Of a DNA stretch of 64,000 bases, positions 7,005 through 60,191 are shown piece by piece. The notes below the pieces were generated by a model. The model was not told where the DNA came from. It saw only the letters and a list, made by a program, of their open reading frames with translations, and ran no database searches. Made by a program: the position numbers and the translations under genes. Numbering within the stretch: the stretch's first letter is position 1; every line of letters starts with the position of its first letter. The DNA is from Entoloma clypeatum (lineage: Eukaryota; Basidiomycota; Agaricomycetes; Agaricales; Entolomataceae), in contig OY751488.1 of the NCBI GenBank assembly GCA_963565915.1, positions 372,001 to 436,000 on the forward strand. Reading direction: 5' to 3'.

Positions 7005-7140
7005 CTGTTGTAAGATGCGACGGATCTCCGATTCGATGTACTGCTGGATGAGTGTAAAATCGATATGGTGAAGTCTTCAAAGAAGTGCGACGTCTTGACT
7101 CGTCTGGTAGTTGCTCTCTTTGCTCTGGGCGAACCTAACG

Positions 7141-7151: not shown

Positions 7152-7153
7152 CT

Positions 7154-15549: not shown

Positions 15550-15695
15550 ACTCATCCGCTACCGCCTATAGTCAGTACCTATATAAACCTCTTGTACTGT
15601 AGTAGGTTCCTTAGATTTAGCAATCACATTGCTCTTCGCCTTTCCACTTCCTGCATACTCTGCCCGAACCTTGGAACGGTTTGTTAAGCATAACA
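15451..15695 (+). repeat. Partial LTR inside Gypsy-1B leader
   Basis: The last 245 bp of an LTR of the 1A subtype, with TATATAAA and RNA start, is joined to leader sequence at a 3-bp microhomology ACT. A second copy of the leader follows. An identical junction occurs in Gypsy-1C (60213-60457). It gives the element a second internal promoter. Confidence 0.9.
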
Positions 15696-15844
15696 AGTTG
15701 CTAAATCTCGTTAGGTTCGCCCAGAGCAAAGAGAGCAACTACCAGACGAGTCAAGACGTCGCACTTCTTTGAAGACTTCACCATATCGATTTTACACTCA
15801 TCCAGCAGTACATCGAATCGGAGATCCGTCGCATCTTACAACAG

Positions 15845-16108
15845 GTGCTTGGCGAAGAACTAGACAACGACGAGCATCGCCCCCACGGCGAGATAGCAGA
15901 GAGCATCCATCTTGCTCGACAACACCAGATCGCGCGTTACAACGCCCGACAGAACGAACTCGAAAGTTTTCGCGTTCAAGAAGGACCTCAGACAGGTCGG
16001 ATCACAGAGATCAGAGAGTTTATTGGTGTCCAGACAACCGTTATCAGAAGATTGATTAGGACGCTCACATCGAGACGTCCCAGAGCCACATCATCACATC
16101 TTACTTGA
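15845..16108 (+). CDS. Gypsy-1B leader ORF (inner copy), truncated
   Basis: An 87-codon frame identical to the one in Gypsy-1A, preceded by the same leader deletion of about 55 bp near 15783. It overlaps the gag frame by about 48 bases, one base out of register. No slippery heptamer is evident in the overlap. Confidence 0.45.
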   Translation: MLGEELDNDEHRPHGEIAESIHLARQHQIARYNARQNELESFRVQEGPQTGRITEIREFIGVQTTVIRRLIRTLTSRRPRATSSHLT

Positions 16109-17295
16109 AAGAACAGATCTACGCCCACTTCACCACCAGCGAGCAACAGATCGAGTACAACTGTTGGGCACAAAACGAGAGACTTGACCCCTTCTCGCAA
16201 CCAACAGACGCGCAGGAACAGAGATTCCTTAGAGATCTACAGAGGAAATACCCCAAACGTTTTGCCACTGATTCCGCCGACGAGTCCCCTGACGAATTTG
16301 CTTTTGACTCCGCGCAGTCAGATATCGAACAGATGCCTAGAACAGGGACTCATTTTCAACCCTTACCTGTATCCCGAACCCCATCTTCATCCCACCAATC
16401 CGACTCCTCTTCTCCTCCGCAGACTCTAGACATGGCAGAAGCTCCGGCAGTACAAACAATGGATACATCCAAGATCATCAAGGATCCTGGGATGTTCAAG
16501 GACAGACACACCTTTGATGAGTGGTGGAAAGCCACCAAACTATACATCAGGTTCCAGAAGAGCCTCACAGATGATCAGAAGATTCTTGCGGTGCTATCCC
16601 GCATGATGGAAGGGTCCGGCAAGCACTGGGCCAGTAACAAGTTAGACGCTCTTGCTGTTGACAACGAGAACATCACCTGGCTAGGCTTCTCCGATGATAT
16701 CGCCACACGATTCTCCATCGCCAACAAATCGGTTGCTGCCAAAGCAAGACTCGAAGTTCTGAGACAAGAGAAACGCACCGTTGATGAATTCTTGGACGAA
16801 TTCGAAGAGCTCTTGAAGCTGTCAAACCTTGGCAAAGAAACTGGGAAATACATTCTAGAAAAGAACGTCAACCGCAGAATCTCTGAACAAGTGGCTAGTG
16901 ATGGCAAGACATACACCGAGTACGCAAAGGAGATCCGAAACAAGGGACGACAGATGGAAGGACATGCACTGGTCATCCGAGGTGGCGACATGCGCACCAG
17001 ATCGGGTACCACTTATGGTGGTCAGGGCAAAGCCATGGAGATCGACAAGGCAGGGGTAGCCCGTTGCTACAACTGTCAACGCTTCGGTCACCTCGCGAAG
17101 GACTGCAGCGCTCCAAAGAAGAAAGATGGTCGCAAGTGTTTCAACTGTGACCAAGAAGGCCATATTGCGCGCAACTGCCGCAAGCCGAAGAAGAACTCCG
17201 GAAGGGTTAGGAAGGTGTCTGAAGAAGATGCCGAGAATGATGAAACCACAATCTTAGAAGCTGATGAGAAGGATTTTCCCGAAGGGTCTGATTAA
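16105..17295 (+). CDS. Gypsy-1B gag
   Basis: A 396-codon open frame, the same protein as the gag of Gypsy-1A. The likely capsid start is MAEAPAVQ at 16432, although the frame is open from 16060. Two CCHC knuckles lie at about 17062-17185. It is intact. Confidence 0.9.
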   Translation: MKEQIYAHFTTSEQQIEYNCWAQNERLDPFSQPTDAQEQRFLRDLQRKYPKRFATDSADESPDEFAFDSAQSDIEQMPRTGTHFQPLPVSRTPSSSHQSDSSSPPQTLDMAEAPAVQTMDTSKIIKDPGMFKDRHTFDEWWKATKLYIRFQKSLTDDQKILAVLSRMMEGSGKHWASNKLDALAVDNENITWLGFSDDIATRFSIANKSVAAKARLEVLRQEKRTVDEFLDEFEELLKLSNLGKETGKYILEKNVNRRISEQVASDGKTYTEYAKEIRNKGRQMEGHALVIRGGDMRTRSGTTYGGQGKAMEIDKAGVARCYNCQRFGHLAKDCSAPKKKDGRKCFNCDQEGHIARNCRKPKKNSGRVRKVSEEDAENDETTILEADEKDFPEGSD

Positions 17296-17345
17296 ACGAC
17301 GCTAAGTCGCAACCCCTATCTATTAAACGGACTTGCTTGCCTTGT

Positions 17346-20300
17346 ATGACTGCAGACAATAGAACCTATGTCATCCCTGCCAAGCGAGCCGCTGCGTCGA
17401 CTAAGATTGTGAAGGGAGACAAACCTCCGAAACGATGAGAGATCAGGCTGTTAGCTCAGCTCAAAACACGACGAGGACCAAAGGTCATTCGACCTGAGGT
17501 TGATAGCGGATGTGAACGCACATGCATCCATCCCAGAATAGTACGCGAACAGAACCTCCCCACGCGAGGAATACCACCCATAGCAATTCTAAATGCGGAT
17601 GGATCACCAAATCGACAACAAAAAGCGAATCAACTTGCCGAAGTCAAGCTGGATTTGGGAACACATCAGGAAACCATGGAAGCGATGGTACTGGACATTG
17701 GGAGAACCGACATGCTCTTGGGACATGACTGGTTGGTACACCACAACCCTACGATCAATTGGATAACCGGCGCTGTAACGTTCAACCGGTGCCCAACAAC
17801 ATGCCGAACCAAACATTCGGATTTCAAGGTTAATCTTGATGGTCGCAAACACCGGGTCCGCATGGTTGAGGTACGCGACAAAGACGCACCCAAGAAGTCG
17901 GATCAGAAATGGAAGCCTGGAGACCCTATATTGGAAGCTGTCACTCCCACACCACCTCCCACAACCAAATGACCCTCATACATTGATCGGTTTGCTCACC
18001 TCTTCGAGAAGGAGAACTTTGATAAGATCCCAAAGGAAAGGGAATGGGACCATGGTATCGAACTTACACCGGATGCACCAAAGGAACTAGGGGGAAATAC
18101 ATATCCCATGACACAAAAGGAACAAGAAGAATTGGACGCTTTCATCGACGAGGGTCTAGCAACTGGAAAGATCCGCCCATCCAAATCCCCTTATGCCTCT
18201 CCTTGTTTCTTCATAAACAAGAAGGATGGTTCCAAACGATTGGTACAAGACTACCGCATGGTTAACAAATTTACGGTCAAAGACAAGTTCCCACTCCCAC
18301 GCATCTCCGACCTCTTGGACGTGCTGAAAGATGCAGTCTACTTCAATAAGATGGACATCATGTGGGGTTACAACAACGTCCGGATTAAGGAAGGCGATGA
18401 ATGGAAGGCCGCCTTCCTCACCAGTCGAGGGTTGTTCGAACCATTGGTTATGTTTTTCGGCCTTTGCAACTCCCCGGGAACGTTCTCTCGGATGATGGCT
18501 AGTCTATTCTGGGACCAGATCCGCCGACGCATCTGCGTGATCTACATGGATGACATTGTGGTTATTGGTAAAACCAAGGAAGAACTCGCGCGAAACACCG
18601 AAGAAATTCTGCAGATCCTATCGGACAATGACTTGTTCCTAAAGGAGAAAAAGTGTTTCTGGGAAGTAACGAAATGCCCCATATTGGGATATGTTGTTGG
18701 TGAAGGACGTGTTGAGATGGAAACTGAGAAGGTGGATACAATCCGAAACTGGTGAGCACCCACATCAAAGAAAGGAAGTCCAGAAGTTCCTTGGGTTTGC
18801 CAACTTCTACCGGCGCTTCATTGAAGGATACTCAAACATCACGAAACCACTTACTGCGCTTACAGATGGCACTGCATTTACTTGGGGACCAACGGAACAA
18901 AAAGCATTTGAAGGTCTCATACAGGCGATCACATCGGCACGAGTCTTGGCATTACCAAAACCAGATGGACAGTTCAGGGTCGAAACCGATGCATCGGGCT
19001 ATGCAATTGGGGCTGTACTCTCTCAAAAACAGGACAACAAATGGCATCCTATCGTGTTCTTGTCGCGGACCATGTCCGCGGTCGAACAAAATTATGAGAT
19101 ATACGACAAAGAGCTTTTGGCAGTCATGGAAGCACTGAAAGATTGGAGACACTATCTACTCGAAGCCAGGGAATGCTTTGAGATCTTAACTGATCACAAG
19201 AACCTGGAGTATTTCTGCCGTCCTCAGGACCTAAATCAACGACAAAGGCGTTGGAAGATGAAGTTACAAGATTATGACTTCGAATTACGGCATGTGCCTG
19301 GCAAGACAAATGCAAAAGCGGATATCCTATCGCGCTTACCCTGGTATGAAACGGAACTCGAACCACAAGGCAGTGACCAAATGCTCAAGGAGGGACTATT
19401 CTTGAAACGATTGGAATCAGAAGATGTGATACAAATGGAGATGTTCACGGAGGAACAATTCTTTGAAGGGGGTGAAACATCTGATTCCATCAAGATTGGA
19501 AACATCACGACCATTGAAAATCCGTGGATTGCACGCATCAAGGGTTCAAACCGCATGGAGACAGAAGTAGCCCAGGGTCTAAAGAAGAATCCTGATTGGT
19601 ATCAACAGGAAAACGGCATCACATATGCAGGCGAACAAGTCTATGTTCCACCAGACCCACAACTGCGTCAAGAACTGATGTTTGAATCACACGATGCACC
19701 AGTGGCTGGACATCCAGGACAATATCGGACGCATGAACTTCTCACTCGTACCTACTGGTGGCCTACTATCCTGCATGATGTGAAGAAATATGTAAAAGGT
19801 TGTGACACCTGTCAACGCAACAAGATCAACAGACAGAAACGGCATGCTCCGCTACATCCCCATGCAGCACCAAGTCATCCATGGGAAGACATAGGGATTG
19901 ATGTTGTGGGACCGATACCAGAGTCCGATGGAAAGAATGCGATTCTGGTCATCACAGACAGACATTCGAAGATGCTCCATCTCATTCCGACAACTGTGGA
20001 ATTATCGGCTGAAGGATTAGCCAAGATCTATCGGGATCAAATATGGAAGCTTCATGGGATCCCCAAAAAGATCATCAGTGACAGAGGACCACAGTTCGCC
20101 GCGAAGTTCATGGAGATACTTTGCCGCATGCTAGGAATCAAAAGGAACCTGTCCACCGCATACCATCCACAGACCGATGGACAGGCCGAACGATCGCATC
20201 AGGAAACAGAAGCATTCTTACGAAAGTTCGTTAACCATCTGCAAGATGATTGGGCTGAATGGATCGCAATCGCTGAATTCCAGTACAATGACAAAGAACA

Positions 20301-21177
20301 TCAGGCGACGAAGCACACACCATTCTATCTCAACTATGGCTTACACCCTTGGAAGAGAGAACTTGTGTTGGAAGACACCAATCCGGCTGCCAACGACTTC
20401 TTGAAAAAACTCAAACAGGCACGAGAAGAAGCCAATGCAGCACTAAAACAAGCACAGGACCAGATGAAGAAGACAGTTGATACACAATGGAGTCCGTCTC
20501 AGAACTATCGCATCGGAGACAAGGTGTGGCTGGAAGGGACTAACATCAGGACCGATCGCCCCTCAAAGAAACTTGATGCACTCCGACATGGACCATTCAA
20601 AGTCCTAGAGAAGAAAGGAGCTAGTGCGTACCTTCTTGATCTTCCGAAGACTTGGAAAATGATTCACCCTGTGTTCAATGAGACCCTGTTGTCACCCTAC
20701 GAAACCCCGAAGTACGCTATCCAGAAGAAGAAACCAGCCCTCCAGTACAATGACAAAGAACATCAGGCGACGAAGCACACACCATTCTATCTCAACTATG
20801 GCTTACACCCTTGGAAGGGAGAGCTTGTATTGGAAGATACCAATCCGGCTGCCAACGACTTCTTGAAAAAACTCACCCAGGCACGAGAAGAAGCCAACGC
20901 AGCACTGAAACAAGCACAGGATCAGATGAAAAAGACAGTTGATACACGATGAAGTCTGTCTTGGGACTACCGCATTGGAGACAAGGTGTGGCTGGAAGGG
21001 ACTAACATCAGGACTAACCGTCCCTCGAAGAAACTCAACGCACTCCGACATGGACCATTCAAAGTCCTAGAGAAGAAAGGGGCTAGCGCGTACCTTCTTG
21101 ATCTTCCGAAGACTTGGAAAATGATTCACCCTGTGTTCAACGAGACCCTGTTGTCACCCTACAGAACCTCGAGCTAA
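17346..21177 (+). pseudogene. Gypsy-1B pol, broken in the same places as 1A
   Basis: From the ATG at 17346 the order is protease (VDSGCERTC), RT (YMDD near 18546), RNase H (TDASGYAIGAVL), integrase zinc domain and core. In-frame TGA codons occur at about 17436, 17971, 18753 and 20950, with a frameshift near 18775. The 20281-20740 block is repeated at 20741-21170. Every one of these defects is shared with Gypsy-1A and none is present in Gypsy-1C. The frame ends at 21177 without a chromodomain. Confidence 0.9.
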
Positions 21178-21374
21178 TGTGCAGAACGCTCAAGATTTGA
21201 TCCGTGATTTCCATCGGCAGAACCCGTCTCGTCCACGATAAAAGACAAGCTCTCGAAACCCATGGCAGTATCGACCTCATCAGTCAACCACACACCGAGT
21301 TCTCCGCTCTAGTCTCTTCCCTGCCCAATATCGCCACCCCGTTCTTCTTCTATCTCTCAACCATCCTCGCCGCC

Positions 21375-21488
21375 ATGTCAAACACCATCGTCACCTCCAC
21401 CTCCACCACCGACATCAACCCCGCCATCGCCGCTCTTATGAACGAAGCACTCTCCATGAGAGACCAAATTCATGCCCTCGAAACTTAA
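21375..21488 (+). pseudogene. Truncated ORF3 at the chimera junction
   Basis: The ORF3 start (MSNTIVTST...) runs for about 36 codons. Near 21486 the sequence switches abruptly to the chromodomain end of a pol gene. This marks the template-switch point in Gypsy-1B. Confidence 0.8.
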
Positions 21489-37930: not shown

Positions 37931-38295
37931 GCTGAGCAGGCTGCCCTGTTGCTCCGTGGCCCCAGTGGATCACCGAATCTTGCATGGTGCTAGTGTTGCC
38001 GCAGCTTGGGCTTGGAGCTGGCTCAAGCCCGAGCCAAGCCATCCCAGAGCCGAAGCCAAGCTGAAGCCAAGCCGAACCTGGCTATCAAGGGCCCAGCATA
38101 TCAAAGGGTAGCTGAGCTGCTGCTTGGCTCTGAAGCCGGCTCAAGCCAAGCCCTGAACATGAATTTTTGGGGAACTTAGGATGTGGACGGGGGGCTGCGG
38201 GGCACCAGAACCCATTCAGTTCTCTCTTTCGTAACGGTTTGTACATATTTTTGAGTGTAGATGTTAAAATAGGGGTAAAATATAGTGGTTAATCA

Positions 38296-40845
38296 TTATC
38301 TGAGAGCTTGCCTCCAACAAATTTCCATGCACTGAGTATACAACTTTTTCCTCTCCTGCACTACATAAACCATCGCAAGGTGTTCGGCAGGGAGATGTAC
38401 TTCAAGCCCTGTCCCCATGGGCACGGGGCTGTCGATGTGATCAATGACTTCAACAAGTGCCACGGCCTGTGAGCCACTGTGGGTATGACACATCCGGAGC
38501 GTGAACTTCCCAATGTGCTCCCCCCGAAGAATGACGAGTAGAGTGTCGGTCCATTTTACATCCGGGTGGACAATGGAGACCCAACTCGGCTCTAGAATGT
38601 GGGTTTGTCGGTTGGCACAATAGATGATTTTGGGCTCTGCAAGGTGCATCGAGCCAGAAACAAAGACCTTGATGTTGTTGAACTGGCTGCCTGGTACCCT
38701 TGCTTGTACTTTGACATCTCGAAGCCGGAGATCGAGAAGGATATGCTGAGGGATGGTGAGGACTGGTTCTGGTGGTGCAGGAGGAGGAGTCGCACACATA
38801 GGATCTGGAGTCCAGGATGAAGGATCCCATGCGGGCGACATTGACGAGGAATCAAATGGGCTGGGCATGTGGGTGGCACCACCGTCAGGTCTGATTCTAC
38901 TGTGTTTGGCAGCACAGAAATGGGGTACGCGGTCCCGGGGACGCGGGTCAAACATGGGAGACACTGGCCGCTGGAACTTGAACAGCTCTTTCATGGATCT
39001 AGATAATGAATGTTAGCACTAATAGACATACATCAGCTCAAAAATGTTCTCGACTTCAACAACATCATCGTAGTCAAAGACCGCCCTCTTATATGGTGCA
39101 TTCGCATCGTAGTTCTCGAACTGAATTTCAACTCTGAGGCCACTTGGCGTATCTTGATTGATGAGGACGTTAACAACGTGCGCGCGTTGGCCTTTACGCG
39201 GATGCCCCCTCTTCATAACCATGACCTGCACGCCTCTGCAAGGCATTGGATCTCGCTGGTTCAACACGGCGGAAAGTGCCAAGTCGTCGTTCGAAGTGAT
39301 GGTATAGGGCGTGGTGTGGGGTCAAGCGCAAGCGCGGCGCTGTTTCTATGGACAACGAATGACTGAGCTGGACGTGAGTGAGCCATTAGTTGCACTGGGA
39401 AGAGTCACATACCTCCATGGCAGGATGGGGGTCGGTACCACAAGCTTTCCCAGAGCTTTCAAGGATCCAGACATCGGTTTCGGTGAACTTTTCTACCCAC
39501 CCCATATGGCCTCCATGCACCCCTCCAACTACTCTGACAAAATCCCCGACTGTGAGAGCCTTACGAACGTCATACCACGGAACCCTCAGAAGTCCCTCGC
39601 CACTGACAAGCTCGATCTCAAGGAAATCCGGCTGGATCTCGTTGACACGCGCTAACTTCCCATAGTGTGGGTGTTCTACAACCTCCACCAGCTCGCCGGG
39701 GGAGAAACACCATTCAAGGGGGTTGGGGAATTTCGCGTCACACATCGCGGGGTGCCCACTCATGAGAAAATGACTGTGAATTTTTGTAGAAATGAAAACG
39801 GCGGAGGGTGACACAGAATATGCATCCAAGTCCATTGCCACCAGCCCGTGCTCGAAAGTGCACCCATGGAACTTGTATGTAGCCGCACCCATCTGAGTGG
39901 GCGTCATACCGTAGGCCTTCGCGACGTCAGATGGATTGAAAAGGGCGGGGTCAGGACGGGGGGTTGAGCGCAGTCGTTTTGCAGGTTTTTTGGATGAGAG
40001 GTCGCGCGGAGGCTGGAGGCGGGGCACTAGGAGGAGCTGCAGCCCGCCCCAGTGCTTCAGCTTCCTAACATACCCTAGATCATCTTTGTACCAGCCCTTT
40101 TTGACCTGTACCCACTGCCCGACTCTGAACCTCAGCTCTCGGTCCTTTGGTAAATGGAGTGTCCCCACGCGAGCCTCAGGTGGGATGAAGGTAATGATTG
40201 GTTCACCTTGCCTGGTCATAAGCCCGGGGGTAAGCCGCAGAAAGCGGACGAGGTCTGGATTCATGTCGCCTTTGATGAATATTGAGCCATGGAGTGGGCC
40301 GCATGTATAGGCGCCCGACATCACCTCAGCCCTCTCCCCGACCAGCTGGAAGAGCACATACACTGCGTCTTCTTCGAAACCTGGCTAGAAGATCATGAGA
40401 AACATCCTGTAAAAGGTTGCATGAGAGACTTACCCAACATTTAACCTGCCAGATGGGTTTGTTGTCCCCCCGTGGCTGTACCCACAACTGGTAGGCGAGA
40501 GTGTCTGTGATGTCCTCTGGGAACTCATCTTTGCATCCAGTGGTAGTCCGTGAACGCAACCCTCCGATCTCGTGGGCACGTTGGCGCGCGTGCTCATAAA
40601 CCACGTCCTAGTCGATCTCATCAGCCAGGCCACCTTGTTCATCCCATCAGCGAGTTCCAGCAGGAGGAACCTCGTTGATATCGTCAATGAACCCTTGGAA
40701 GGCATGTCAGACGACCAAGGAGTGACCAATGTTACTTACCACTGCCCTCTTCCTCCTCCTCCTCCTCATCATCATCACCATCATCTACCTGCGCCTCTGC
40801 ATCAATGAAAGGGTTATTGTAGCGATCGGTGGTCTGTGAAACCAT
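38296..40845 (-). pseudogene. Spt5-like NGN/KOW protein gene inside the hAT transposon
   Basis: A start is likely at the ATG at 40845 (MVSQTTDRYNNPFIDAEA), followed by an Asp/Glu-rich run near 40775. After an intron (GTAAGTAACA...) comes a region with VVYEHARQRAHEIGGL. An NGN-type domain spans about 40520-40210 (QLWVQPRGDNKPIWQVK, an intron, then EEDAVYVLFQLVGERAEVMS and GPLHGSIFIKGD). KOW motifs follow: VGQWVQVKKGWYKDDLGYV, SPGELVEVVEHPHYGKLARV, VGDFVRVVGGVHGGHMGWV and KGQRAHVVNVL. Near 38860 a SPAWDPSSWTPDP stretch resembles the Spt5 C-terminal repeats. The order matches Spt5, the elongation factor bound to RNA polymerase II. Stops near 40653 and 40610 look like C-to-T changes. It is shorter than a usual Spt5 of about 1,000 residues. 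Confidence 0.8.
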
Positions 40846-41146
40846 CCATAAGGCTGCGCATGTTCTCGGTCAATCAAGTAAACGTACCCAGCGACAACTC
40901 ATGTTACACCAGGCTCTCTGTAATAACCATCAGTCGATGCTTGCAAAGTCTCATCTATAACATTGAAGATGGAAGCTGCACTCCCGCCACACCTCCAAGC
41001 GCCCTCGACACATCATTTGCTTGTTGCATTCAATTTCTCTTTCTCCCTTTTATACTCAAGGCATCGCCTTTATATGCCCTGTAGTCGGGACTTCTTGTAT
41101 TCTAACAAGTGCTACCAACATACTACTTACACCACCACAACTTACC

Positions 41147-41493
41147 GTGAGGATGGGGAGGGGAGATGGAGGTACGAGAGAAGGAGGGAAAGCTTACACA
41201 ATCATGTGGTGGGTTGTTGATAGTGGTCATGCACTCACAACACCGGGTCGGGATTCAGAAGCAGGCACATAACCTCCATGTGCCTGCTTCTGAATCCCGA
41301 CCCGGTGTTGTGAGTGCATGACCACTATCAACAACCCACCACATGATTGTGTAAGCTTTCCCTCCTTCTATGTGCCTGCTTCTGAATCCCGACCCGGTGT
41401 TGTGAGTGCATGACCACTATCAACAACCCACCACATGATTGTGTAAGCTTTCCCTCCTTCTCTCGTACCTCCATCTCCCCTCCCCATCCTCAC
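41147..41493. repeat. Large inverted repeat with a third direct arm
   Basis: Arm 1 (41147-41270) is the reverse complement of arm 3 (41370-41493). Arm 2 (41278-41369) is a shorter copy in the orientation of arm 3. Arms 1 and 2 are separated by only seven bases (AACCTCC), giving a near-perfect hairpin of about 92 bp. It lies between the divergent Spt5-like and transposase genes. Confidence 0.9.
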
Positions 41494-42584
41494 TCCCTGG
41501 ACCTCCCGTTCTCCCGCTACTGTAGATAGTGTATATTATGTAGATCGTTGTGTAGTAATATCATTGGGATGTGTTTAGTACGACATATGACCCTGAAGAT
41601 AGTAATATCGAAGTCGGCGAGACCAATAGCGACCAGCGGGGGGATCCGTTGGATCTCGGGGGCAGCCAGTCGCTGGGCGGCTGGGAGGGGGCGGTCATGC
41701 CCAGCAGAACCTCGAGGCGGACTGAGGCCAAACTCATCCTTGATAGGCCAACATCGTGCGTTGCATGCATTGATCGCTCCCCACTCCTGGCTCACTCATA
41801 TCCCATCCTATAGATCCCAATACTCAGCGAGGGTAGTGATCACCCTGTCCCAGTTCGAACACGACACCACATTCAGGAGGCCCGATTAGCACGGTGAGAC
41901 CAACCGAGAAAGGTTGAAGCCGGTAAGAGGTACTGTTGGTAGAGATCCGAGTGATGGTGAGCATGTTCTCTTCCTGTCTGCCCCGGCAAAGGCTTACTGT
42001 CATTTGTGGAATGTAGTCCTGAGTCACATTAACTTTCTACGCAATAACACTGGTAATACGAAGAATATGCAACTCAAGAACGCGAGGGGATCCAGTTGAC
42101 GCAAGGCGAGGTATCCAACCTGCCTAATCTCCATTGGAACAACAAGGGGCCCCTATCGCACAGAAAGATTCAACCGACACAAGGTATTTACCACTCTTAA
42201 TCTCCAACATTCCCCTTACATTCCCGTATCAGTTTCATTCCAATTTTGGGAAGTAGCATGGCCCGGTCATCAATTCCAGTCTCTAGCAGCGCCACTGGTG
42301 ACTGCCATCGGAAAGCGAGGCCATTTTCATTGGTGCCCTACATGTATGTACGTCAAGCAGACCTCATAGTTTACATGTTGCCTTCAATAAATCCCACATT
42401 GAAGCTGGTGGGGAAGTAATCTCATGAATGAGGAGTGCCAAGGACAGCCCAGATTAGTATGTCAGCTAACTTAGTACCAGCATCCTCTCTATTCATTGAC
42501 CCTTGAGCCTATGAGCATCTGCAAAGGACACATGGTGTAGTGACCGTTACTCTAGCCCCATAAAAGCTGCATGATATCGTAACT
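41494..42584. other. Intergenic region between Spt5-like gene and transposase
   Basis: No credible ORF. The stretch probably contains the transposase promoter and 5' UTR. I see no repeats here apart from the tail of the inverted repeat. Parts such as 41620-41720 are GC-rich, unlike the AT-rich neighbours. Confidence 0.4.
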
Positions 42585-45463
42585 ATGGTTCAGGTTATAC
42601 CACCCCACCTCCCCTCAATGGTTCGCTCCAGAAATACTGCTGCTGCTGCCCGCCGCCGTGTTGAAAGTCCCAGCGAGTTTTTCGACTTTACGGGGCTCGA
42701 TGACACCTCCAGCACCGGAGCGCTGGGTCCATCCGCCACCGGAACACCAGGTTCGTCCACCACTGGAACACCAATCCCATCCAACACCAGGACACGAAGC
42801 TCCAGCCCATCCATTGGGGTCTCACCGCTTCCGGAAACCACCAAGCAGAGAGGGGTGAAAGATATTGCCATATTTTTCGTTGTTGAACTTGTTGGCAGGG
42901 TGAAGAAGTGGGTGTGCAAGTTGTGCAAGTATGTATCCCCCTTCAACCTCGTCCCACAGGACTAACCATATCTCTAGGAGAGACAGGAGAATGGATGTTA
43001 TATACCAGTACGCGATGTCGACTAGCACCAGCGGCACCCACCATCACCTCACTCAATACCATCACAACGAATACTTGGCTGCCTGCGAGAAAAATAAGTG
43101 GATTGAATATCTTAAGAAGCTCACGGCATATGATGCTGGTCCAACCGCCGCCGGGCCCATGGCAGCCCGCATTCCTTTCTCCCAACAGGAATTTGTCAAT
43201 CACCTCGTGAGGTTTATCATCGCCGACGACCAGGTGTGTTCATTCTCCCTAGGCCATTCCATTCCATATGCTGATCAATCCCTCCAGTCCATCAATGTTA
43301 TCAAATGCCCTGAATTCCGGAAACTCCTTCTGCTTCTCCAGGAAGAACTGCAGGATGCGGACATTCCCCACCATACGAAGATCTGCAACGAGATCTTCAC
43401 GGCTTGGTCAGAGCGTTTTGCGGAGCTTAAGGTAGAACTTCGTGTGAGTAATGTCCCTTCACTTCCGACTCTATTTTCTCAGCCCATTCCCACAGGAAGC
43501 CCTTGGACACGTCAGCTTCACAGCTAACATGTGGTCTAGCCAAACACGCTACCCTTATTTTGCAGTTACTGCCCACTGGGTCTCGCGGAACCCCCAGACC
43601 AAGGCCTTGCAGCTGAGCAGCGCACTGATAGTGTTTCATCATGTCTGAGGAAAGCACAGTGGGGAGTGTCTAGCTAGGATTGTGATGAATATACTCAACT
43701 GGGCGCGGATTGCAGACAAGGTGATGATCATTGTTCTTCGTGACTGTCGTAAACCCATCTCACACCTGTGATGTATAGGGAGGACATTGGACATTGGATA
43801 ACGCAGGAATCAACGACACGTTTATGGCTTGCCTCAAAGACCTCTACTCTGAACGCGGGGTCCCTTTTGATGCAGAGGATAACCGCATCATGTGCATCGC
43901 GCATGTTATCAACATTGCGACTCAGCATGTCATTGAGAAGTCGACTTCGCTTAGGTATTTGGACGACCCAGATGTCTTTGACACCCTCCCTGAGAGGACC
44001 GGGAGGACCCGCGACATCATCACTCTATCCAGGAACACCGTCCGCGCTATTCGTGTGTCGGGGCAGAGAATCAACCGTTTTGAGCAGATTATTGATACTG
44101 GTAACAAGGAGGGGTGGTTCACGAATTGAGAGAGTATTGTATTTATTCTCCCAAAGCGCCAGCTCCTCCGTGATGTCAGGTCACGCTGGGACTCCGTCTG
44201 TCTAATGATCAGGAGATTCCTTGAGAACTGCCAGGTAGGCCTTTTGCTTCCCTTTCATCCGTCTTGTTTCTCATCTCACAATATAGCCAATTGATTATTT
44301 TTTTACCAATCCCCTCAACAAAGATCTCGTGCATCTTGCATGCTTGGGATAGAGTGGATTGAACTTGGGAACTTCTTGAAAATACTCTCGGTAGGTTTAT
44401 ATATTGTGGTTGCGTCCCCTTTCTAAACCCTGTTTAGGTTCCTCATGCCATTCAACAAAGGATGTCTGGACATAAGTTGCCGACACTTGCCGCAACGATG
44501 CCAATGTTTGAGATGCTCATGACCCGATGGGAGGAGATTGGCGATACATGCCCACACCTCAAGCCATATACAGATGTTGGCCTGCAATGGACCAGCAAAT
44601 ACTACTGCTGGATGGATCAGACCTCGGCATATGTCGTCGCCTTGTGTAAGTTGTGTTTCCTTCACCACATTAATTGGCACTAAAAAGGACCTAGTTTTAG
44701 ACCCGACGATCTGTGACAGATGGATTTGGAAGCACTGGGGTGAAACCTACACCGAGAAAGCATTTCAGACAATCAAGGACTTGGTGCATTTGATCTACAG
44801 AGTCCAGATGTAACATACTAAAATTCTATGATGAAGATGGCGAAATATCGCGAAAAACTGGTGGAGGCCACACCAATGTCGAACACTGCATCAGCTCCCC
44901 TCCAATCTGAACTCTATGACGTGGCGGCCGACTACAGCCTATGTGATATGCTCGACTTTGACAACTCGGCACCACCAACAACAGGTCCTATAACAGTTGA
45001 GGAGGAATTCACCAACTATGTCGCGGAGCTCTCACCGCGTGGTACAGAACTTCTTAAATTCTGGGATGTATGTATGATCTCTCATGGTACAAATATCAAA
45101 TATTGATGTCCAATCCAGTTGGATGGAGGGAAACACTTCCCGTCTCTCTACCTCATCGCGCTCAACTACCTGGCTATTCAGGCTTCTGCTGTCCCCTGCG
45201 AACACATATTTTCAAGTGCTGCTGAAACTGACACGAAGCGCCGTAATCGGATCCATCCGTCGCTAATGGAGGCCTTGCAAATCCTCAAGTTCATGTTGAA
45301 GCGGGACAGGTTGGACTTCAGTGAGGGGTTAGTTACTGAGGAGAGCGATATGATACTGCTGCCTGGGGATGCACCTGACCACCTTCAGCAACTGGCCATG
45401 GGGGGCAAAGATTTCGACCTTGACCCCTTAATTCAAGACATTGACGCGACCTGTTTGATTTAA
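42585..45463 (+). pseudogene. hAT transposase
   Basis: The ATG at 42585 starts a Ser/Thr/Pro-rich N-terminus. A BED-type zinc finger (WVCKLCK, a 49-bp intron, then THHHLTQYHHNEYL) follows. Further exons, separated by introns of about 50 bp, encode FTANMWSSQTRYPYFAVTAH and HWTLDNAGINDTFMACL, the RNase H-like blocks of hAT enzymes. The C-terminal dimerisation domain has FPSLYLIALNYLAIQASAVP and CEHIFSSAAETDTKRRNRI. Probable stops (TGA near 43647 and 44128) indicate a decayed gene. It would bind the TAGTGTTGCC ends and cut out the element; 8-bp duplications are the hAT hallmark. Confidence 0.85.
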
Positions 45464-45602
45464 TATTTACGTAGCTTATGGTATTCATAATGCTCGGAGT
45501 GTGTCTTGCCACCTTGTGATTCCAGATTACTGTCGACAGGATCTCATGCCAACACGGCCCAACAGCAAGCCATCTTAGTGGGGCCCCCCACTATTGCGAA
45601 GA

Positions 45603-46127
45603 TCAGTCTGCTTTCTGCACCAGGGTGTAGAAACACATGACGAGTGTGTGTGCAGCATGTGCCATCCACTTTGGCAAGTTGGTCTCACCGATGCTGGGCT
45701 CAGACGTCCCCCCAGGTAGGATGCGGAATGCGTCACAGCCAAGAGTGACGGGACGGTCTCGCGCACCGCAGGAAGGAGATGGGCTGGCTGATGGTGCGAG
45801 GGCTGGAGGAAATGTGGGAGAACCCAGAGGACAACGTGAGCCTGGCTGCCATGTTGGAGACAACAGAGTCAAGCAGTTTGGCGGTGACAGAGAGAGACTC
45901 TGGGGAAGCGTTGAGGGTGACGATGACCTGCTGAACCTCGAGGGGGATGACGTGCGGGTTCTTGTGGGTCCACACATGTTCATGGACAGGAATACAGTCG
46001 CTGTGTTGGAGGAGCACATGGATGGGCTGAACAGGTGTAAATGTCGTTGAAGAAAAGAGCGATGAGTGCTTGATTGGTTAGGACACAACCACGCAGCGCT
46101 GTGGTGGCTTTTTTCATTTTTAAACAT
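45603..46127 (-). CDS. Hypothetical protein in hAT transposon
   Basis: Minus-strand frames between 46127 and 45603 are open, and a second frame (46017-45733) has ordinary protein-like composition (VIPLEVQQVIVTLNASPESL, then SVTAKLLDSVVSNMAARLTL). The coding signal seems to move between the two frames near 45760, through an intron or a frameshift. I recognise no domain. It lies convergent to the transposase, just inside the right end. Confidence 0.3.
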   Translation of the reverse strand: MFKNEKSHHSAAWLCPNQSSTHRSFLQRHLHLFSPSMCSSNTATVFLSMNMCGPTRTRTSSPSRFSRSSSPSTLPQSLSLSPPNCLTLLSPTWQPGSRCPLGSPTFPPALAPSASPSPSCGARDRPVTLGCDAFRILPGGTSEPSIGETNLPKWMAHAAHTLVMCFYTLVQKAD

Positions 46128-46634
46128 AGTTCTAGCTACGTATAAGCTGGTCTGCCATTGGTATTATGAATATTCTTTTAATACATTGAACCGAAAACAT
46201 GGGAAAACTCACTCCAACACACCCCATAAGGACAGCCTTGGAGCCAGCTCGAAGCCGCTTCCAAGCGCACATGAGCCAAAATCCTCAGTTCGGCTGATTA
46301 TCGGAGCCGAGCACATCAAAAGCCTTGGCTTTTGGAGCCAAGCCGAGCCAAGCCGAGCCGCGGCAACACTACATGGTGCTGTAGGGGGTGTGGGAGATGG
46401 ACATCATGTCGTAGGAGAGAAGATGGAGAGACAGAGTGGGCAGAGGGCAAGCGTGTTCGGTAACCATGGAAACCTGAAGAACAAACTTTAAACCCGGTGA
46501 GATCCAGTGGAGATTAAAATGACTTAGCAAAAATCACTTCATTGACGATTGCCGACTCATCGCCAGAAGGTAAAAATCTTATGTTTCTCACTAAGTGCAG
46601 CATGAAATTAGGAAGATCCGCATAATTCCATATA

Positions 46635-54907: not shown

Positions 54908-57900
54908 TTATTGTGGACGAGACGGGTTCTGCCGATGGAAATCACGGATCAAATCTTGAGCGTTCTGAACATCAGTTTGAGGTTCCCATGTGTTCTCTTC
55001 TGGTCCATATCCTTCCCACTGGACGAGGTACTGGATCTTTCTGCGGAACTTTCGAGAGTCTAGGATTGTAGACACGTGGTACTCCTCTCGTCCTTCGACG
55101 ATGATCGGATCAGGGGCTGGTTTCTTCTTCTGGATAGCGTACTTCGGGGTTTCGTAGGGTGACAACAGGGTCTCGTTGAACACAGGGTGAATCATTTTCC
55201 AAGTCTTCGGAAGATCAAGAAGGTACGCGCTAGCCCCTTTCTTCTCTAGGACTTTAAATGGTCCATGTCGGAGTGCATCAAGTTTCTTTGAGGGGCGATC
55301 GGTCCTGATGTTAGTCCCTTCCAGCCACACCTTGTCTCCAATGCGGTAGTCCCGAGATGGACTTCGCCGTGTGTCAGCTGTCTTCTTCATCTGATCCTGT
55401 GCTTGTTTCAGCGCAGCATTGGCTTCTTCTCGTGCCTGTTTAAGTTTCTTCAAGAAATCGTTGGCAGCCGGATTAGTATCTTCTAACACGAGCTCTCCCT
55501 TCCACCGATGTAAACCATAGTTGAGGTAGAATGGTGTGTGCTTCGTTGCCTGATGTTCTTTGTCATTGTACTGGAACTCTGCGATTGCGATCCATTCAGC
55601 CCAATCATCTTGCAGATGGTTAACGAAGTTTTGTAAGAACGCTTCTGTTTCCTGATGCGATCGCTCGGCCTGTCCATCAGTCTGTGGATGGTATGCGGTG
55701 GACAGGTTCCTTTTGATTCCTAGCATACGGCAAAGTATCTCCATGAACTTCGCGGCGAACTGTGGTCCTCTGTCACTGATGATCTTTTTGGGGATCCCAT
55801 GAAGCTTCCATATTTGATCCCGATAGATCTTGGCTAATCCTTCAGCCGATAATTCCACGGTTGTCGGAATGAGATGGAGCATCTTCGAATGTCTGTCTGT
55901 GATGACCAGAATCGCATTCTTTCCATCGGACTCTGGTATCGGTCCCACAACATCAATTCCTATGTCTTCCCATGGATGACTTGGTGCTGCATGGGGATGT
56001 AGCGGCGCATGCCGTTTCTGTCTGTTGATCTTGTTACGTTGACAGGTGTCACAACCTTTTACGTACTTCTTCACGTCATGCAGGATAGTAGGCCACCAGT
56101 AGGTACGAGTGAGAAGTTCATGCGTTCGATACTGTCCCGGATGTCCAGCCACTGGTGTATCATGCGATTCAAACATTAATTCTTGACGCAGTTGTGGGTC
56201 TGGTGGAACATAGACTCGTTCACCTGCATATGTGATGCCGTTTTCCTGTTGATACCAATGAGGATTCTTCTTTAGACCCTGGGCTACTTCTGTCTCCATG
56301 CGGTTTGAACCCTTGATGCGTGCGATCCACGGATTTTCGATGGTCGTGACATTTCCAATCTTGATGGAATCAGATGTTTCACCCCCTTCAAAGAATTGTT
56401 CCTCCATGAACATCTCCATTTGTACCACATCTTCTGATTCCAATCGTTTCAAGAATAGTCCCTCCTTGAGCATTTGGTCACTGTCTTGCGGTTCGAGTTC
56501 CGTTTCATACCAGGGTAAGCGCGACAGAATGTCCGCTTTTGCATTTGTCTTGCCAGGCACATGCCGTAATTTGAAGTCATAATCTTGTAACTTCATCTTC
56601 CAGCGCCTTTGTCGTTGATTTAGGTCCTGAGGACGGCGGAAATACTCCAGGTTCTTGTGATCGGTTAAGATCTCAAAGCGTTCCCTGGCTTCGAGTAGAT
56701 AGTGTCTCCAATCCTTCAGTGCTTCCATGACTGCCAAGAGCTCTTTGTCGTATATCTCGTAATTTTGTTCGGCCGCGGACATGGTCCGCGACAAGAACAC
56801 GATAGGGTGCCATTTGTCGTCCTGTTTTTGAGAGAGTATAGCCCCAATTGCATAGCCCGATGCATCGGTTTCTACCCGGAATTGTCCATCTGGTTTTGGT
56901 AATGCCAAGACTGGTGCTGACTTGATCGCCTGTATGAGCCCTTCAAATGCTTTTTGTTCCGTTGGTCCCCAAGTAAATGCAGTGCCGCCTGTGAGCGCGG
57001 TGAGTGGTTTTGCGATGTTTGAGTACCCTTCAATGAAACGTCGATAGAAGTTAGCAAACCCAAGGAACTTCTGAACTTCCTTTTTTGATGTAGGTGCTCG
57101 CCAGTTTCGGATTGTATCCACCTTCTCGGTTTCCATCTCGACACGTCCTTCACCAACGACATATCCCAATATGGGGCATTTCGTTACTTCCCAGAAACAC
57201 TTCTTCTCCTTCAGGAACAAGTCATTGTCCGATAGGATCTGCAGAATTTCTTCAGTGTTTCGCGCGAGTTCTTCCTTTGTTTTACCAATAACCACAATGT
57301 CATCCATGTAGATCACGCAGATGCGTCGGCGGATCTGGTCTCGGAATAGACTAGCCATCATCCGAGAGAATGTTCCCGGGGAGTTGCAAAGGCCGAAAAA
57401 CATGACCAATGGTTCGAACAATCCTCGACTGGTGAGGAAGGCAGCCTTCCATTCATCGCCTTCCTTAATCCGGACGTTGTTGTAACCCCACATGATGTCC
57501 ATCTTGTTGAAGTAGACTGCATCTTTCAGCACGTCTAAGAGGTCGGAGATGCGTGGGAGTGGGAACTTGTCTTTGACCGTAAATTTGTTGACCATGCGGT
57601 AGTCTTGTACCAATCGTTTGGAACCATCCTTCTTGTTGATGAAGAAACAAGGAGAGGCATAAGGGGATTTGGACAGGCGGATCTTTCCAGTTGCTAGGCC
57701 TTTGTCAATGAACGCGTCCAATTCTTCTTGTTCCTTTTGTGTCATGGGATATGTATTTCCCCCTAGTTCCTTTGGTGCGTCTGGTGTAAGTTCGATACCA
57801 TGGTCCCATTCTCTTTCCTTTGGGATCTTATCGAAGTTCTCCTTCTCAAAGAGGTGAGCAAACTGATCAACATATGAGGGTCGTTTGGTTGTGGGAGGTG

Positions 57901-58507
57901 GTGTGGGAGTGACAGCTTCCAAGATAGGGTCTCCAGGTTTCCATTTCTGATTCGACTTCTTTGGTGCATCTTTGTCGCGTACTTTGACCATGCGAACCCG
58001 GTGTTTGCGACCATCAAGGTTAACCCTGAAATCTGAATGTTTGGTTCGGCATGTAGTTGGACACCGGTTGAACGTTACAGCGCCGGTTGTCCAATTGATC
58101 GTAGGGTTGTGGTGTACCAACCAGTCATGTCCCAAGAGCATGTCGGTTCTCCCAATGTCCAGTACCATCGCTTCCATGGTTTCCTGATGTGTTCCCAAAT
58201 CCAGCTTGACTTCGGCAAGTTGGTTCGCTTTTTGTTGTCGATTTGGTGATCCATCCGCATTTAGAATTGCTATGGGCGGTATTCCTCGCGTGGGGAGGTT
58301 CTGTTCACGTACTATTCTGGGATGGATGCATGTGCGTTCACATCCGCTATCAACCTCAGGTCGAATGTCCTTTGGTCCTCGTCGTGTTTTGAGCTGAGCT
58401 AACAGCCTGATCTCTCGTCGTTTCGGAGGTTTATCTCCCTTCACAATCTTAGTCGACGCAGCGGCTCGCTTGGCAGGGATGACATAGGTTCTATTGTCTG
58501 CAGTCAT
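54908..58507 (-). CDS. Gypsy-1C pol (PR-RT-RNase H-IN-chromodomain)
   Basis: The ATG at 58507 (MTADNRTYVIPAKRAAA) starts a continuous Pol of about 1,199 residues. Protease: VDSGCERTC near residue 53. RT: FINKKDGSKRLVQDYRMVN, FGLCNSPGTFSRMM and YMDDIVV near residue 400. RNase H: ETDASGYAIGAIL and a DxxxLSRL end. Integrase: HPGQYRTHELL with CDTCQ, then DVVGP and SDRGPQFAAKF of the D,D-35-E core. Chromodomain: the last about 70 residues, with EYHVSTILDSR and VQWEGYGPEENTWEP. gag ends 51 bases upstream in another frame. Confidence 0.95.
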   Translation of the reverse strand: MTADNRTYVIPAKRAAASTKIVKGDKPPKRREIRLLAQLKTRRGPKDIRPEVDSGCERTCIHPRIVREQNLPTRGIPPIAILNADGSPNRQQKANQLAEVKLDLGTHQETMEAMVLDIGRTDMLLGHDWLVHHNPTINWTTGAVTFNRCPTTCRTKHSDFRVNLDGRKHRVRMVKVRDKDAPKKSNQKWKPGDPILEAVTPTPPPTTKRPSYVDQFAHLFEKENFDKIPKEREWDHGIELTPDAPKELGGNTYPMTQKEQEELDAFIDKGLATGKIRLSKSPYASPCFFINKKDGSKRLVQDYRMVNKFTVKDKFPLPRISDLLDVLKDAVYFNKMDIMWGYNNVRIKEGDEWKAAFLTSRGLFEPLVMFFGLCNSPGTFSRMMASLFRDQIRRRICVIYMDDIVVIGKTKEELARNTEEILQILSDNDLFLKEKKCFWEVTKCPILGYVVGEGRVEMETEKVDTIRNWRAPTSKKEVQKFLGFANFYRRFIEGYSNIAKPLTALTGGTAFTWGPTEQKAFEGLIQAIKSAPVLALPKPDGQFRVETDASGYAIGAILSQKQDDKWHPIVFLSRTMSAAEQNYEIYDKELLAVMEALKDWRHYLLEARERFEILTDHKNLEYFRRPQDLNQRQRRWKMKLQDYDFKLRHVPGKTNAKADILSRLPWYETELEPQDSDQMLKEGLFLKRLESEDVVQMEMFMEEQFFEGGETSDSIKIGNVTTIENPWIARIKGSNRMETEVAQGLKKNPHWYQQENGITYAGERVYVPPDPQLRQELMFESHDTPVAGHPGQYRTHELLTRTYWWPTILHDVKKYVKGCDTCQRNKINRQKRHAPLHPHAAPSHPWEDIGIDVVGPIPESDGKNAILVITDRHSKMLHLIPTTVELSAEGLAKIYRDQIWKLHGIPKKIISDRGPQFAAKFMEILCRMLGIKRNLSTAYHPQTDGQAERSHQETEAFLQNFVNHLQDDWAEWIAIAEFQYNDKEHQATKHTPFYLNYGLHRWKGELVLEDTNPAANDFLKKLKQAREEANAALKQAQDQMKKTADTRRSPSRDYRIGDKVWLEGTNIRTDRPSKKLDALRHGPFKVLEKKGASAYLLDLPKTWKMIHPVFNETLLSPYETPKYAIQKKKPAPDPIIVEGREEYHVSTILDSRKFRRKIQYLVQWEGYGPEENTWEPQTDVQNAQDLIRDFHRQNPSRPQ

Positions 58508-58557
58508 ACAAGGCAAGCAAGTCCGTTTAATAGATAGGGGTCGCGACTTAGCGTCGT

Positions 58558-59748
58558 TTAATCAGACCCTTCGGGAAAATCCTTCTCATCGGCTTCTAAG
58601 ATTGTGGTTTCGTCTTTCTCGGCATCTTCTTCAGACACCTTCCTAACCCTTCCGGAGTTCTTCTTCGGCTTGCGGCAGTTGCGCGCAATATGGCCTTCTT
58701 GGTCACAGTTGAAACACTTGCGACCATCTTTCTTCTTTGGAGCGCTGCAGTCCTTAGCGAGGTGACCGAAGCGTTGACAGTTGTAGCAACGGGCTACCCC
58801 TGCTTTGTCGATCTCCATGGCTTTGCCCTGACCACCATAAGTGGTACCCGATCCGGTGCGCATGTCGCCACCTCGGATGACCAGTGCATGTCCTTCCATC
58901 TGTCGTCCCTTGTTTCGGATCTCCTTTGCGTACTCGGTGTATGTCTTGCCATCACTAGCCACTTGTTCAGAGATTCTGCGGTTGACGTTCTTTTCTAGAA
59001 TGTATTTCCCAGTTTCTTTGCCAAGGTTTGACAGCTTCAAGAGCTCTTCGAATTCGTCCAAGAATTCATCAACGGTGCGTTTCTCTTGTCTCAGAACTTC
59101 GAGTCTTGATTTGGCAGCAACCGATTTGTTGGCGATGGAGAATCGTGTGGCGATATCATCGGAGAAGCCTAGCCAGGTGATGTTCTCGTTGTCAACAGCA
59201 AGAGCGTCTAACTTGTTACTGGCCCAGTGCCTGCCGGACCCTTCCATCATGCGGGATAGCACCGCAAGAATCTTCTGATCGTCTGTGAGGCTCTTCTGGA
59301 ACCTGATGTATAGTTTGGTGGCTTTCCACCACTCGTCAAAGGTGTGTCTGTCCTTGAACATCCCAGGATCCTTGATGATCTTGGCTGTATCCATTGTTTG
59401 CACTGCTGGAGCTTCTGCCATGTTTAGAGTCTGCGGAGGAGAAGAGGAGTTGGATTGTTGGGATGAAGATGGGGTTCGGGATATAGGTAAGGGTTGAAAA
59501 TGAGTCCTTGTTCTAGGCGTCTGTTCGATGTCTGACTGCGCGGAGTCAAAAGCAAATTCGTCAGGGGACTCGTCGGCGGAATCGGTGGCAAAATGTTCGG
59601 GGTATTTCCTCTGTAGATCTCTAAGGAATCTCTGTTCCTGCGCATCTGTTGGTTGCGAGAAGGGGTCAAGTCTCTCGTTTTGTGCCCAACAGTTGTACTC
59701 GATCTGTTGCTCGCCGGTGGTGAAGTGGGCGTAGATCTGTTCTTTCAA
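58558..59748 (-). CDS. Gypsy-1C gag
   Basis: A 396-codon intact frame with a capsid region after MAEAPAVQTMDTAK and two CCHC knuckles. It differs from the 1A/1B copies at scattered residues. It overlaps the leader ORF by a few codons out of frame. Confidence 0.9.
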   Translation of the reverse strand: MKEQIYAHFTTGEQQIEYNCWAQNERLDPFSQPTDAQEQRFLRDLQRKYPEHFATDSADESPDEFAFDSAQSDIEQTPRTRTHFQPLPISRTPSSSQQSNSSSPPQTLNMAEAPAVQTMDTAKIIKDPGMFKDRHTFDEWWKATKLYIRFQKSLTDDQKILAVLSRMMEGSGRHWASNKLDALAVDNENITWLGFSDDIATRFSIANKSVAAKSRLEVLRQEKRTVDEFLDEFEELLKLSNLGKETGKYILEKNVNRRISEQVASDGKTYTEYAKEIRNKGRQMEGHALVIRGGDMRTGSGTTYGGQGKAMEIDKAGVARCYNCQRFGHLAKDCSAPKKKDGRKCFNCDQEGHIARNCRKPKKNSGRVRKVSEEDAEKDETTILEADEKDFPEGSD

Positions 59749-60191
59749 GTAAGATGTGATGATGTGGCTCTGGGACGTCTCAATGTGAGCGTCCTAATCA
59801 ATCTTCTGATAACGGTTGTCTGGACACCGATAAACTCTCTGATCTCTGTGATCCGACCTGTCTGAGGTCCTTCTTGAACGTGAAAGCTTTCGAGTTCGTT
59901 CTGTCTGGTGTTGTAACGCGCGATCTGGTGTTGTCGAGCAAGATGGATGCTCTCTGCTATCTCGCCGTGGGGGCGATGCTCGTCGTTGTCTAGTTCTTCG
60001 TCAAGCACCTGTTGTAAGATGCGACGGATCTCCGATTCGATGTACTGCTGGATGAGTGTAAAATCGATACTGTCTCGAGGACTTAGCTCCTCCTGTCGGG
60101 CTTCTGGTGAGGCGAATGGGTTACTGGTGAAGTCTTCAAAGAAGCGCGACGTCTTGACTTGTCTGGTAGTTGCTCTCTTCGCTCTGGGCAA
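59745..60191 (-). CDS. Gypsy-1C leader ORF (gag N-terminal part)
   Basis: The frame is open for 148 codons but has no ATG. In the outer leader copy the corresponding position is ATG (MSRFFEDFTSNPFASPEARQ); here it is ACG. The content is charged and probably helical (ESEIRRILQQVL, then IAESIHLARQHQIARYN). It ends where gag, one base out of register, is open. It is probably the authentic N-terminus of Gag in the family, reached by frameshift, or an independent ORF0. Confidence 0.5.
   Translation of the reverse strand: MPRAKRATTRQVKTSRFFEDFTSNPFASPEARQEELSPRDSIDFTLIQQYIESEIRRILQQVLDEELDNDEHRPHGEIAESIHLARQHQIARYNTRQNELESFHVQEGPQTGRITEIREFIGVQTTVIRRLIRTLTLRRPRATSSHLT

What the first reader, a model, noticed from the sequence alone, without database searches (positions are those of the whole stretch)
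37991..46371. hAT transposon carrying an Spt5-like NGN/KOW gene
Clear TIRs (TAGTGTTGCCGC) and a perfect 8-bp duplication CATGGTGC enclose both a hAT transposase and a multi-exon gene with an acidic N-terminus, NGN-like domain, several KOW motifs and a Spt5-CTR-like tail. Spt5 is a core transcription elongation factor. A mobile copy could be captured cargo, or a transposon-encoded factor that helps transcription of the element or interferes with host silencing. I know of no described hAT with such cargo.
Basis: partly seen in the sequence, partly recalled or inferred. Interest (0 to 1): 0.88.

Follow-up and report, generated by a model that had tools for sequence, protein, structure and literature searches.

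The report
hAT transposon with own Spt5 gene
A family of fungal jumping genes carries, next to its transposase, its own version of Spt5, the protein that helps RNA polymerase keep transcribing, and selection seems to have kept the two genes together, which suggests that the element brings its own transcription helper.

Summary
Window 37991-46371 is a hAT element: 12-bp TIRs, perfect 8-bp TSD CATGGTGC, a hAT transposase (+) and a divergent Spt5-like gene (-). It is not a one-off capture. The same 60-Mb genome has 53 merged Spt5-like loci of this type; 26 have a related hAT transposase within 20 kb, 25 of them divergent (1.7 expected at random); 0 of 28 less related hAT loci do. Ten elements read end to end (nine chosen by me) all carry parts of both genes; 5 of 10 have perfect, different TSDs. 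The two genes co-diverge (r = 0.96, 42 pairs). Between subfamilies I and II the Spt5-like core shows purifying selection (pN/pS 0.39-0.41; neutral 0.88-0.89; 0 of 500 simulations). It keeps NGN, KOW and a CTR-like motif. Homologues occur in Laccaria, Cyclocybe, Panaeolus, Pholiota and Tricholoma, in a clade apart from host Spt5. Most likely it is an element-dedicated Pol II elongation factor; that function is inferred. The window copy is decayed. Nine paper searches showed no such hAT.

The parts
37983..37990 (.). target-site duplication CATGGTGC, left copy
   Evidence: exact
37991..38002 (+). left TIR TAGTGTTGCCGC (Spt5 side), followed by AGCC/GGCT-rich subterminal sequence
   Evidence: exact
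38296..39012 (-). ORF (238 aa) holding the CTR-like motif and the C-terminal domain, 3' part of the Spt5-like gene
   Evidence: the homologous part of L063 matches all 10 elements read, only 42 aa of it in L067
38299..38739 (-). C-terminal domain after the CTR-like motif, conserved in the clade; relation to the host Spt5 C-terminal region inconclusive; no Pfam match
38803..38838 (-). CTR-like motif SPAWDPSSWTPD
   Evidence: host Spt5 has TPAWN...RTPNPYA repeats
39019..39321 (-). ORF (100 aa), colinear with a KOW5-like stretch of the relatives; itself without a Pfam match
   Evidence: P0038 and P0046 have sub-threshold KOW5 there (19.7 and 25.7 bits, cut-off 27)
39386..40384 (-). 332-aa ORF: most of the NGN domain, KOW1-linker, KOW2-KOW3
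40430..40697 (-). upstream exon with the first NGN strand (PIWQVKCWV); two in-frame stops in this copy (40647-40649, 40608-40610)
   Evidence: homologous exon in L063 (compared by eye)
40735..40845 (-). probable first exon: acidic N-terminus (DDGDDDEEEEEEE)
   Evidence: compared by eye with L063 and host
40846..42617 (.). 1.77-kb region between the two divergent genes; holds an inverted repeat with 125-nt arms (41147-41271 / 41369-41493), 100% complementary
42618..45463 (+). hAT transposase gene (several exons, borders approximate; in-frame stop at 44127-44129; first presumed catalytic Asp is Asn here)
45131..45295 (+). hAT C-terminal dimerisation domain PF05699, with AVPCEHIFSS
46360..46371 (-). 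right TIR (transposase side)
   Evidence: exact
46372..46379 (.). target-site duplication CATGGTGC, right copy
   Evidence: exact

Best explanation
This is one decayed copy of an old two-gene hAT transposon family in the genome of a fungus that is probably agaricalean (its nearest named protein relatives are). One gene is the transposase; the other, transcribed divergently, encodes a dedicated, fast-evolving Spt5 paralogue (acidic N-terminus, NGN, KOW array, one or a few CTR-like S/T-P-A/T-W-D/N-P motifs, extra C-terminal domain). Shown: the element structure, its recurrence with independent TSDs, co-divergence of the two genes, purifying selection on the Spt5-like core between subfamilies I and II, Spt5 sequence and fold. 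Inferred: the protein joins RNA polymerase II through its NGN, probably with host Spt4 (one Spt4 locus was found in the genome), is phosphorylated at the CTR-like motif, and helps Pol II elongate through the element or through its silenced chromatin, so that transposase is made; a eukaryotic analogue of specialised NusG paralogues such as RfaH and of element-encoded anti-silencing factors. Which step it serves is not known.
For: Structure and TSDs. 26 of 53 Spt5-like loci have a related hAT within 20 kb, 25 divergent, against 1.7 on average and 7 at most in 2000 random placements; 0 of 28 less related hAT loci. 10 of 10 elements read carry both genes or remnants. Identities of transposase and Spt5-like protein correlate 0.96 over 42 pairs (pairs are not independent), and both trees separate I, II and the single III element. 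pN/pS between subfamilies I and II 0.39 and 0.41 against 0.89 and 0.88 neutral, 0 of 500 each. Sequence and fold are Spt5. CTR-like motif in copies of subfamilies I, II, III and in Laccaria, Cyclocybe and Pholiota proteins. One Spt4 locus. All sampled copies (I-IV) cluster with Agaricales proteins, UFBoot 100 for the 25-sequence split, host and plant Spt5 outside.
Against: No expression, binding or mobility data. 27 of 53 Spt5-like loci have no related hAT within 20 kb. Of the 30 Spt5-query loci held with 1.5-kb flanks only 10 show a TIR-like site with at most 1 mismatch, one of them (L020) doubtful; in subfamily III the TIR would lie beyond that flank. L025's similarity to element L065 stops before the TIR and no TIR was found in the next kilobase. 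Of 8 within-subfamily pairs 4 are indistinguishable from neutral, as expected after insertion but no support. 4 of the 10 elements have no or only 6/8 TSD match. Pol II- or Spt4-contact residues were not tested. Linkage to hAT in other species could not be examined. The C-terminal domain's link to host Spt5 was not significant. Of the six NGN-positive loci, only two lie in elements that I read.
Confidence: 0.55

Rival explanations
1. Passive passenger: an Spt5 paralogue was captured once by an ancestral hAT element and rides along without serving it.
For: 27 of 53 Spt5-like loci lie without a nearby related hAT; a derivative without either gene has also moved (L076, TSD TCGCTTCC), so the gene is not needed in cis; four of eight recent pairs evolve near neutrality.
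Against: Purifying selection between subfamilies I and II, co-divergence across three subfamilies, retention of NGN, KOW and CTR-like motif in order.
Confidence: 0.12
2. Interference with host defence: the Spt5-like protein acts in trans as a decoy or partial substitute on Pol II and uncouples co-transcriptional silencing (the reverse of what the plant Spt5-like KTF1/RDM3 does).
For: P0038 also matches plant RNA-directed DNA methylation 3 (E 2e-7); many differences between copies are CpG transitions (for example 21 of 50 between L001 and L004), as methylation-linked decay would give; fungal DNA transposons carry other epigenetic modifiers (TET/JBP, PMC12730594).
Against: No AGO-hook or other silencing motif was sought; the plant match covers residues 30-165, the NGN-KOW1 part that other Spt5 chains match too; nothing shows an effect on silencing.
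Confidence: 0.2
3. Transposition accessory: the protein binds element DNA or RNA or the transposase and aids excision, integration or targeting rather than transcription.
For: Some transposons need a second protein (recalled: Spm TnpA, Mutator MURB); KOW domains bind nucleic acid (recalled).
Against: The Spt5 order including NGN and the CTR-like motif is kept, which points to Pol II.
Confidence: 0.1
4. Coincidence: two unrelated elements nested, or a host gene hit by a hAT insertion.
For: The window is rich in retroelement-like ORFs, and some pairs lie 10-40 kb apart, so inserted sequence exists.
Against: Divergent pairing in 25 of 26 neighbouring loci, matching ends and TSDs, co-divergence.
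Confidence: 0.01

Closest known systems
TET/JBP-bearing fungal DNA transposons, including hAT7 of Puccinia (Kojima 2025, PMC12730594; abstract, section list and passages seen)
   Same: Fungal DNA transposons, one lineage of them hAT, with a second gene for an epigenetic enzyme thought to help the element escape silencing.
   Different: Cargo is a dioxygenase, not Spt5; hAT7 makes 7-bp TSDs, here 8 bp; main text has 0 occurrences of KOW, Spt5 or NusG.
Specialised NusG paralogues such as RfaH (PMC7593976, PMC6391919; starts of abstracts in a search listing only)
   Same: A second NusG/Spt5 family protein dedicated to a few targets beside the housekeeping one.
   Different: Bacterial; the recruitment signal here, if any, is unknown.
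VANC anti-silencing proteins of Arabidopsis VANDAL elements (PMC5735166, PMC10398659; starts of abstracts in a search listing only)
   Same: Transposon-encoded protein that counteracts silencing of its own family.
   Different: Sequence-specific anti-silencing proteins, not elongation factors; homology not tested.
Host Spt5 (C10:3766401, locus L070)
   Same: NGN, KOW, CTR repeats.
   Different: 22% identity over the core; outside the clade; several long CTR repeats.
Plant Spt5-like KTF1/RDM3 (PDB 8hyj_W; function recalled)
   Same: A second Spt5 of eukaryotes tied to transposon silencing.
   Different: Host gene of plants; matches only by the NGN-KOW1 part.

Membership tests
hAT superfamily | 8-bp TSD and short TIRs | tested here: met
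   perfect TSD in 5 of 10 elements, 7/8 in one, 6/8 in one, no match in three; TIR within 1 mismatch at both ends in 10 of 10, nine of which I chose by their TIRs
hAT superfamily | hAT dimerisation domain PF05699 | tested here: met
   E 7e-9, 35.8 bits, cut-off 21.4
hAT superfamily | three catalytic acidic residues | tested here: met
   patterns A-D-L/M-WSS, WT-V/L-DN and PCE (assignment to the triad recalled) all found in L061, L063, L064, L065, L069; Asn at the first in the window copy and L062; first or second pattern not found in L066, L067, L068
hAT superfamily | cut-and-paste mobility | not testable with these tools
   only insertion footprints seen
Spt5/NusG family | NGN domain | tested here: met
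   PF03439 above cut-off in 6 loci of this type and in P0038, P0042, P0043, P0045, P0046; below it in L063's main exon (17.8 of 22.4 bits) and not listed for the window copy, both lacking the first strand
Spt5/NusG family | KOW domains | tested here: met
   above cut-off in L063 (KOW, KOW4, KOW5), P0025 (KOW, KOW2) and L025 (KOW); window copy 21.2 bits, just below 22.3; fold matches 4ytl, 4ytk
Eukaryotic Spt5 | C-terminal repeat (CTR) | tested here: inconclusive
   CTR-like motif in 22 of 41 sequences scanned, host L070 and paralogue L071 among them, four copies seen twice, many held loci ending before this part; mostly one unit, so a motif rather than a repeat
Eukaryotic Spt5 | C-terminal KOW6-KOW7 region | tested here: inconclusive
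   hhalign against the host tail E 0.054, prob 0.5; against L071 no match
Eukaryotic Spt5 | binds Spt4 and Pol II | not testable with these tools
   one Spt4 locus in the genome
Host Spt5 orthologue | groups with the host's own gene | tested here: not met
   22% identity; UFBoot 100 for the clade without the host gene
TET/JBP-bearing hAT7 | 7-bp TSD | tested here: not met
   8-bp TSDs here
TET/JBP-bearing hAT7 | TET/JBP gene in the element | not tested
   no dedicated search; ten ORFs of the window element scanned with Pfam listed no such family

The most novel reading that the evidence does not exclude
A transposon lineage of Agaricales has long carried a private copy of the universal elongation factor Spt5, which replaces host Spt5 on the element's own Pol II and lets it be transcribed through silenced chromatin: a transposon counterpart, in eukaryotes, of RfaH.
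Probability: 0.35. Interest if true: 0.92.

Novelty: new variant of a known kind. Interest (0 to 1): 0.8.

Why it matters
Transposons with accessory genes are known, but a core Pol II elongation factor kept by selection inside a cut-and-paste element would be a new kind of weapon in the contest between elements and silencing. It offers a natural, fast-evolving series of Spt5 variants for asking which parts of Spt5 matter for transcription through heterochromatin, and it may explain some Spt5/KOW-like gene predictions in mushroom genomes as transposon genes.

Tried and rejected
Two scans of IMG/VR with the Spt5-like protein or profile gave no relative. The TIR pattern with up to 2 mismatches is close to noise (121/114 against 86/102 for the reversed control), so I used only sites with 0 or 1 mismatch; that list was cut short. 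Of 9 paper searches none showed a hAT with Spt5. I judged by the titles and starts of abstracts listed: 20 of 21, 20 of 24, 17 of 17, 7 of 7, 10 of 22, 12 of 14, 15 of 4,633, 12 of 27, 10 of 16. I looked inside only PMC13289920 (passages) and PMC12730594 (passages, abstract and section list). The library lacks most subscription papers, and Repbase was not searched. The fold of P0025 was too poor to use (pLDDT 51.5). C-terminal domain against host tail: not significant. Mobile Spt5-only elements: L025 checked, no TIR in the extra kilobase, unresolved. L071 (C2:40730) is a separate Spt5 paralogue, not followed further. In one search neighbouring hits were merged by distance and the host and L071 loci left out (55 loci, 53); some loci may be two pieces of one element. 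'Less related hAT' means under 50% identity to the window's C-terminal exon. The nine elements were picked as TIR pairs 5-9 kb apart next to a transposase hit, so 10 of 10 is not an unbiased rate; two of them (L067, L069) had no Spt5 hit beforehand. The support values printed on the rerooted tree were shifted by one node along the path to the root; one search reads them from the splits, and only those are used.
Full report
What is there. The window holds a hAT-type insertion, 37991-46371, with exact 12-bp TIRs and an exact 8-bp TSD. On the plus strand lies a multi-exon hAT transposase (PF05699, E 7e-9). On the minus strand, divergently, lies a multi-exon gene whose 332-aa main exon matches Spt5 of solved elongation complexes (E 1.4e-9). 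An AlphaFold2 model of it (pLDDT 81.9) gives mostly Pol II complexes as best PDB matches (16 of the first 23 titles name RNA polymerase II; whole-model TM-scores are low) and fits KOW2-KOW3 and KOW1-linker1 of Spt5 as single domains (TMt 0.84, 0.80). Upstream exons give an acidic N-terminus and the first NGN strand; downstream ORFs a stretch colinear with KOW5, a CTR-like motif (SPAWDPSSWTPD) and a C-terminal domain. Exon borders are by eye. This copy is decayed: stops in both genes and Asn in place of the first presumed catalytic Asp.

It is a family. Searching the same genome (60 Mb, 20 contigs) with the Spt5-like exon gave 79 matches, with the transposase end 66; further queries added to these. 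Merged, and without the host Spt5 and one other paralogue, there are 53 Spt5-like loci; 26 have a related transposase within 20 kb, 25 divergent and one tandem; random placement gives 1.7 on average and 7 at most in 2000 trials. Seen from the transposase, 24 of 47 related hAT loci have an Spt5-like locus within 20 kb, while 0 of 28 less related hAT loci do. The other 27 Spt5-like loci lack a related transposase within 20 kb. Of the 30 Spt5-query loci held with 1.5-kb flanks, 10 show a TIR-like site with at most one mismatch, one of them doubtful; I could not read the rest further.

Ends and target sites. I read ten elements end to end: the window and nine chosen TIR pairs. TIRs are within one mismatch at both ends of all ten. 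TSDs: perfect in five (window, L061, L062, L065, L069), 7/8 in L068, 6/8 in L066, none in L063, L064, L067. All ten contain both genes or remnants; L067 keeps only 42 aa of the Spt5-like gene, L069 its 3' part. A 1.1-kb derivative without either gene, with ends about 90% like those of L065, also has a perfect TSD (L076).

Selection and age. Between subfamilies I, II and III identity is 33-55% for the Spt5-like protein and 46-55% for the transposase; the two correlate 0.96 over 42 pairs of elements, and both trees separate the same groups, III being one element. In a simulation that keeps the kinds of change, CpG changes included, pN/pS between subfamilies I and II is 0.39 and 0.41 in two pairs against 0.89 and 0.88 expected, 0 of 500 each. 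Of eight pairs within subfamilies four are below neutrality (2 to 12 of 500 simulations as low) and four are not (128 to 263 of 500), as expected of copies that decay after insertion.

Elsewhere. Protein searches found relatives in metagenomes and in named Agaricales: Laccaria amethystina, Cyclocybe aegerita, Panaeolus papilionaceus, Pholiota molesta, Tricholoma matsutake, Phlegmacium glaucopus. In a tree of 34 sequences these, some metagenome proteins and the sampled copies of groups I-IV form a split of 25 with support 100; the host Spt5, the plant Spt5, L071 and the Mycena protein lie outside (tree, supports). Within it, subfamilies I and II with P0001-P0005 have support 100; many other inner nodes are weak (39-66). 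Whether the genes of other species lie in hAT elements could not be examined.

How it may work. Retention of NGN, KOW and a CTR-like motif points to Pol II; a single Spt4 locus suggests that it would use host Spt4. I favour a dedicated elongation factor for the element, perhaps against silencing; this is inference. Rivals are given with their confidence.

Novelty. In nine paper searches the records listed, not all that matched, showed no hAT with an Spt5 gene. The nearest published case seen is TET/JBP-bearing fungal transposons (PMC12730594), whose main text does not mention KOW, Spt5 or NusG.

Noticed in passing
window 41147-41271 and 41369-41493: Inverted repeat with 125-nt arms, 100% complementary, plus a 92-nt direct repeat (99%), in the region between the two genes; could give hairpin RNA or be a recent rearrangement.
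   Followed up: partly
window 1363-7398 and 15451-21486: Two retroelement copies (gag-pol like by eye) in inverted orientation, 99.8% identical over 6.0 kb; a third at 55114-60069 is 96% identical over 5.0 kb.
   Followed up: partly
L071 (C2:40730-41740): A further divergent Spt5 paralogue with NGN, KOW and a CTR-like motif; partial matches at 77% elsewhere; groups with metagenome protein P0028.
   Followed up: partly
C6:848455 (L026), C13:927265, C6:224912: Divergent Spt5-like loci with NGN above cut-off and no related hAT within 20 kb; whether the three belong together, or sit in another element type, was not tested.
   Followed up: no
C15:2460778, C12:4324981 (L025, L023): Close copies (97% protein identity) of the subfamily III Spt5-like gene without a related transposase within 20 kb.
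   Followed up: partly
P0035, Mycena leptocephala: 596-aa NGN/KOW protein outside the 25-sequence clade, possibly another Spt5 paralogue line.
   Followed up: no
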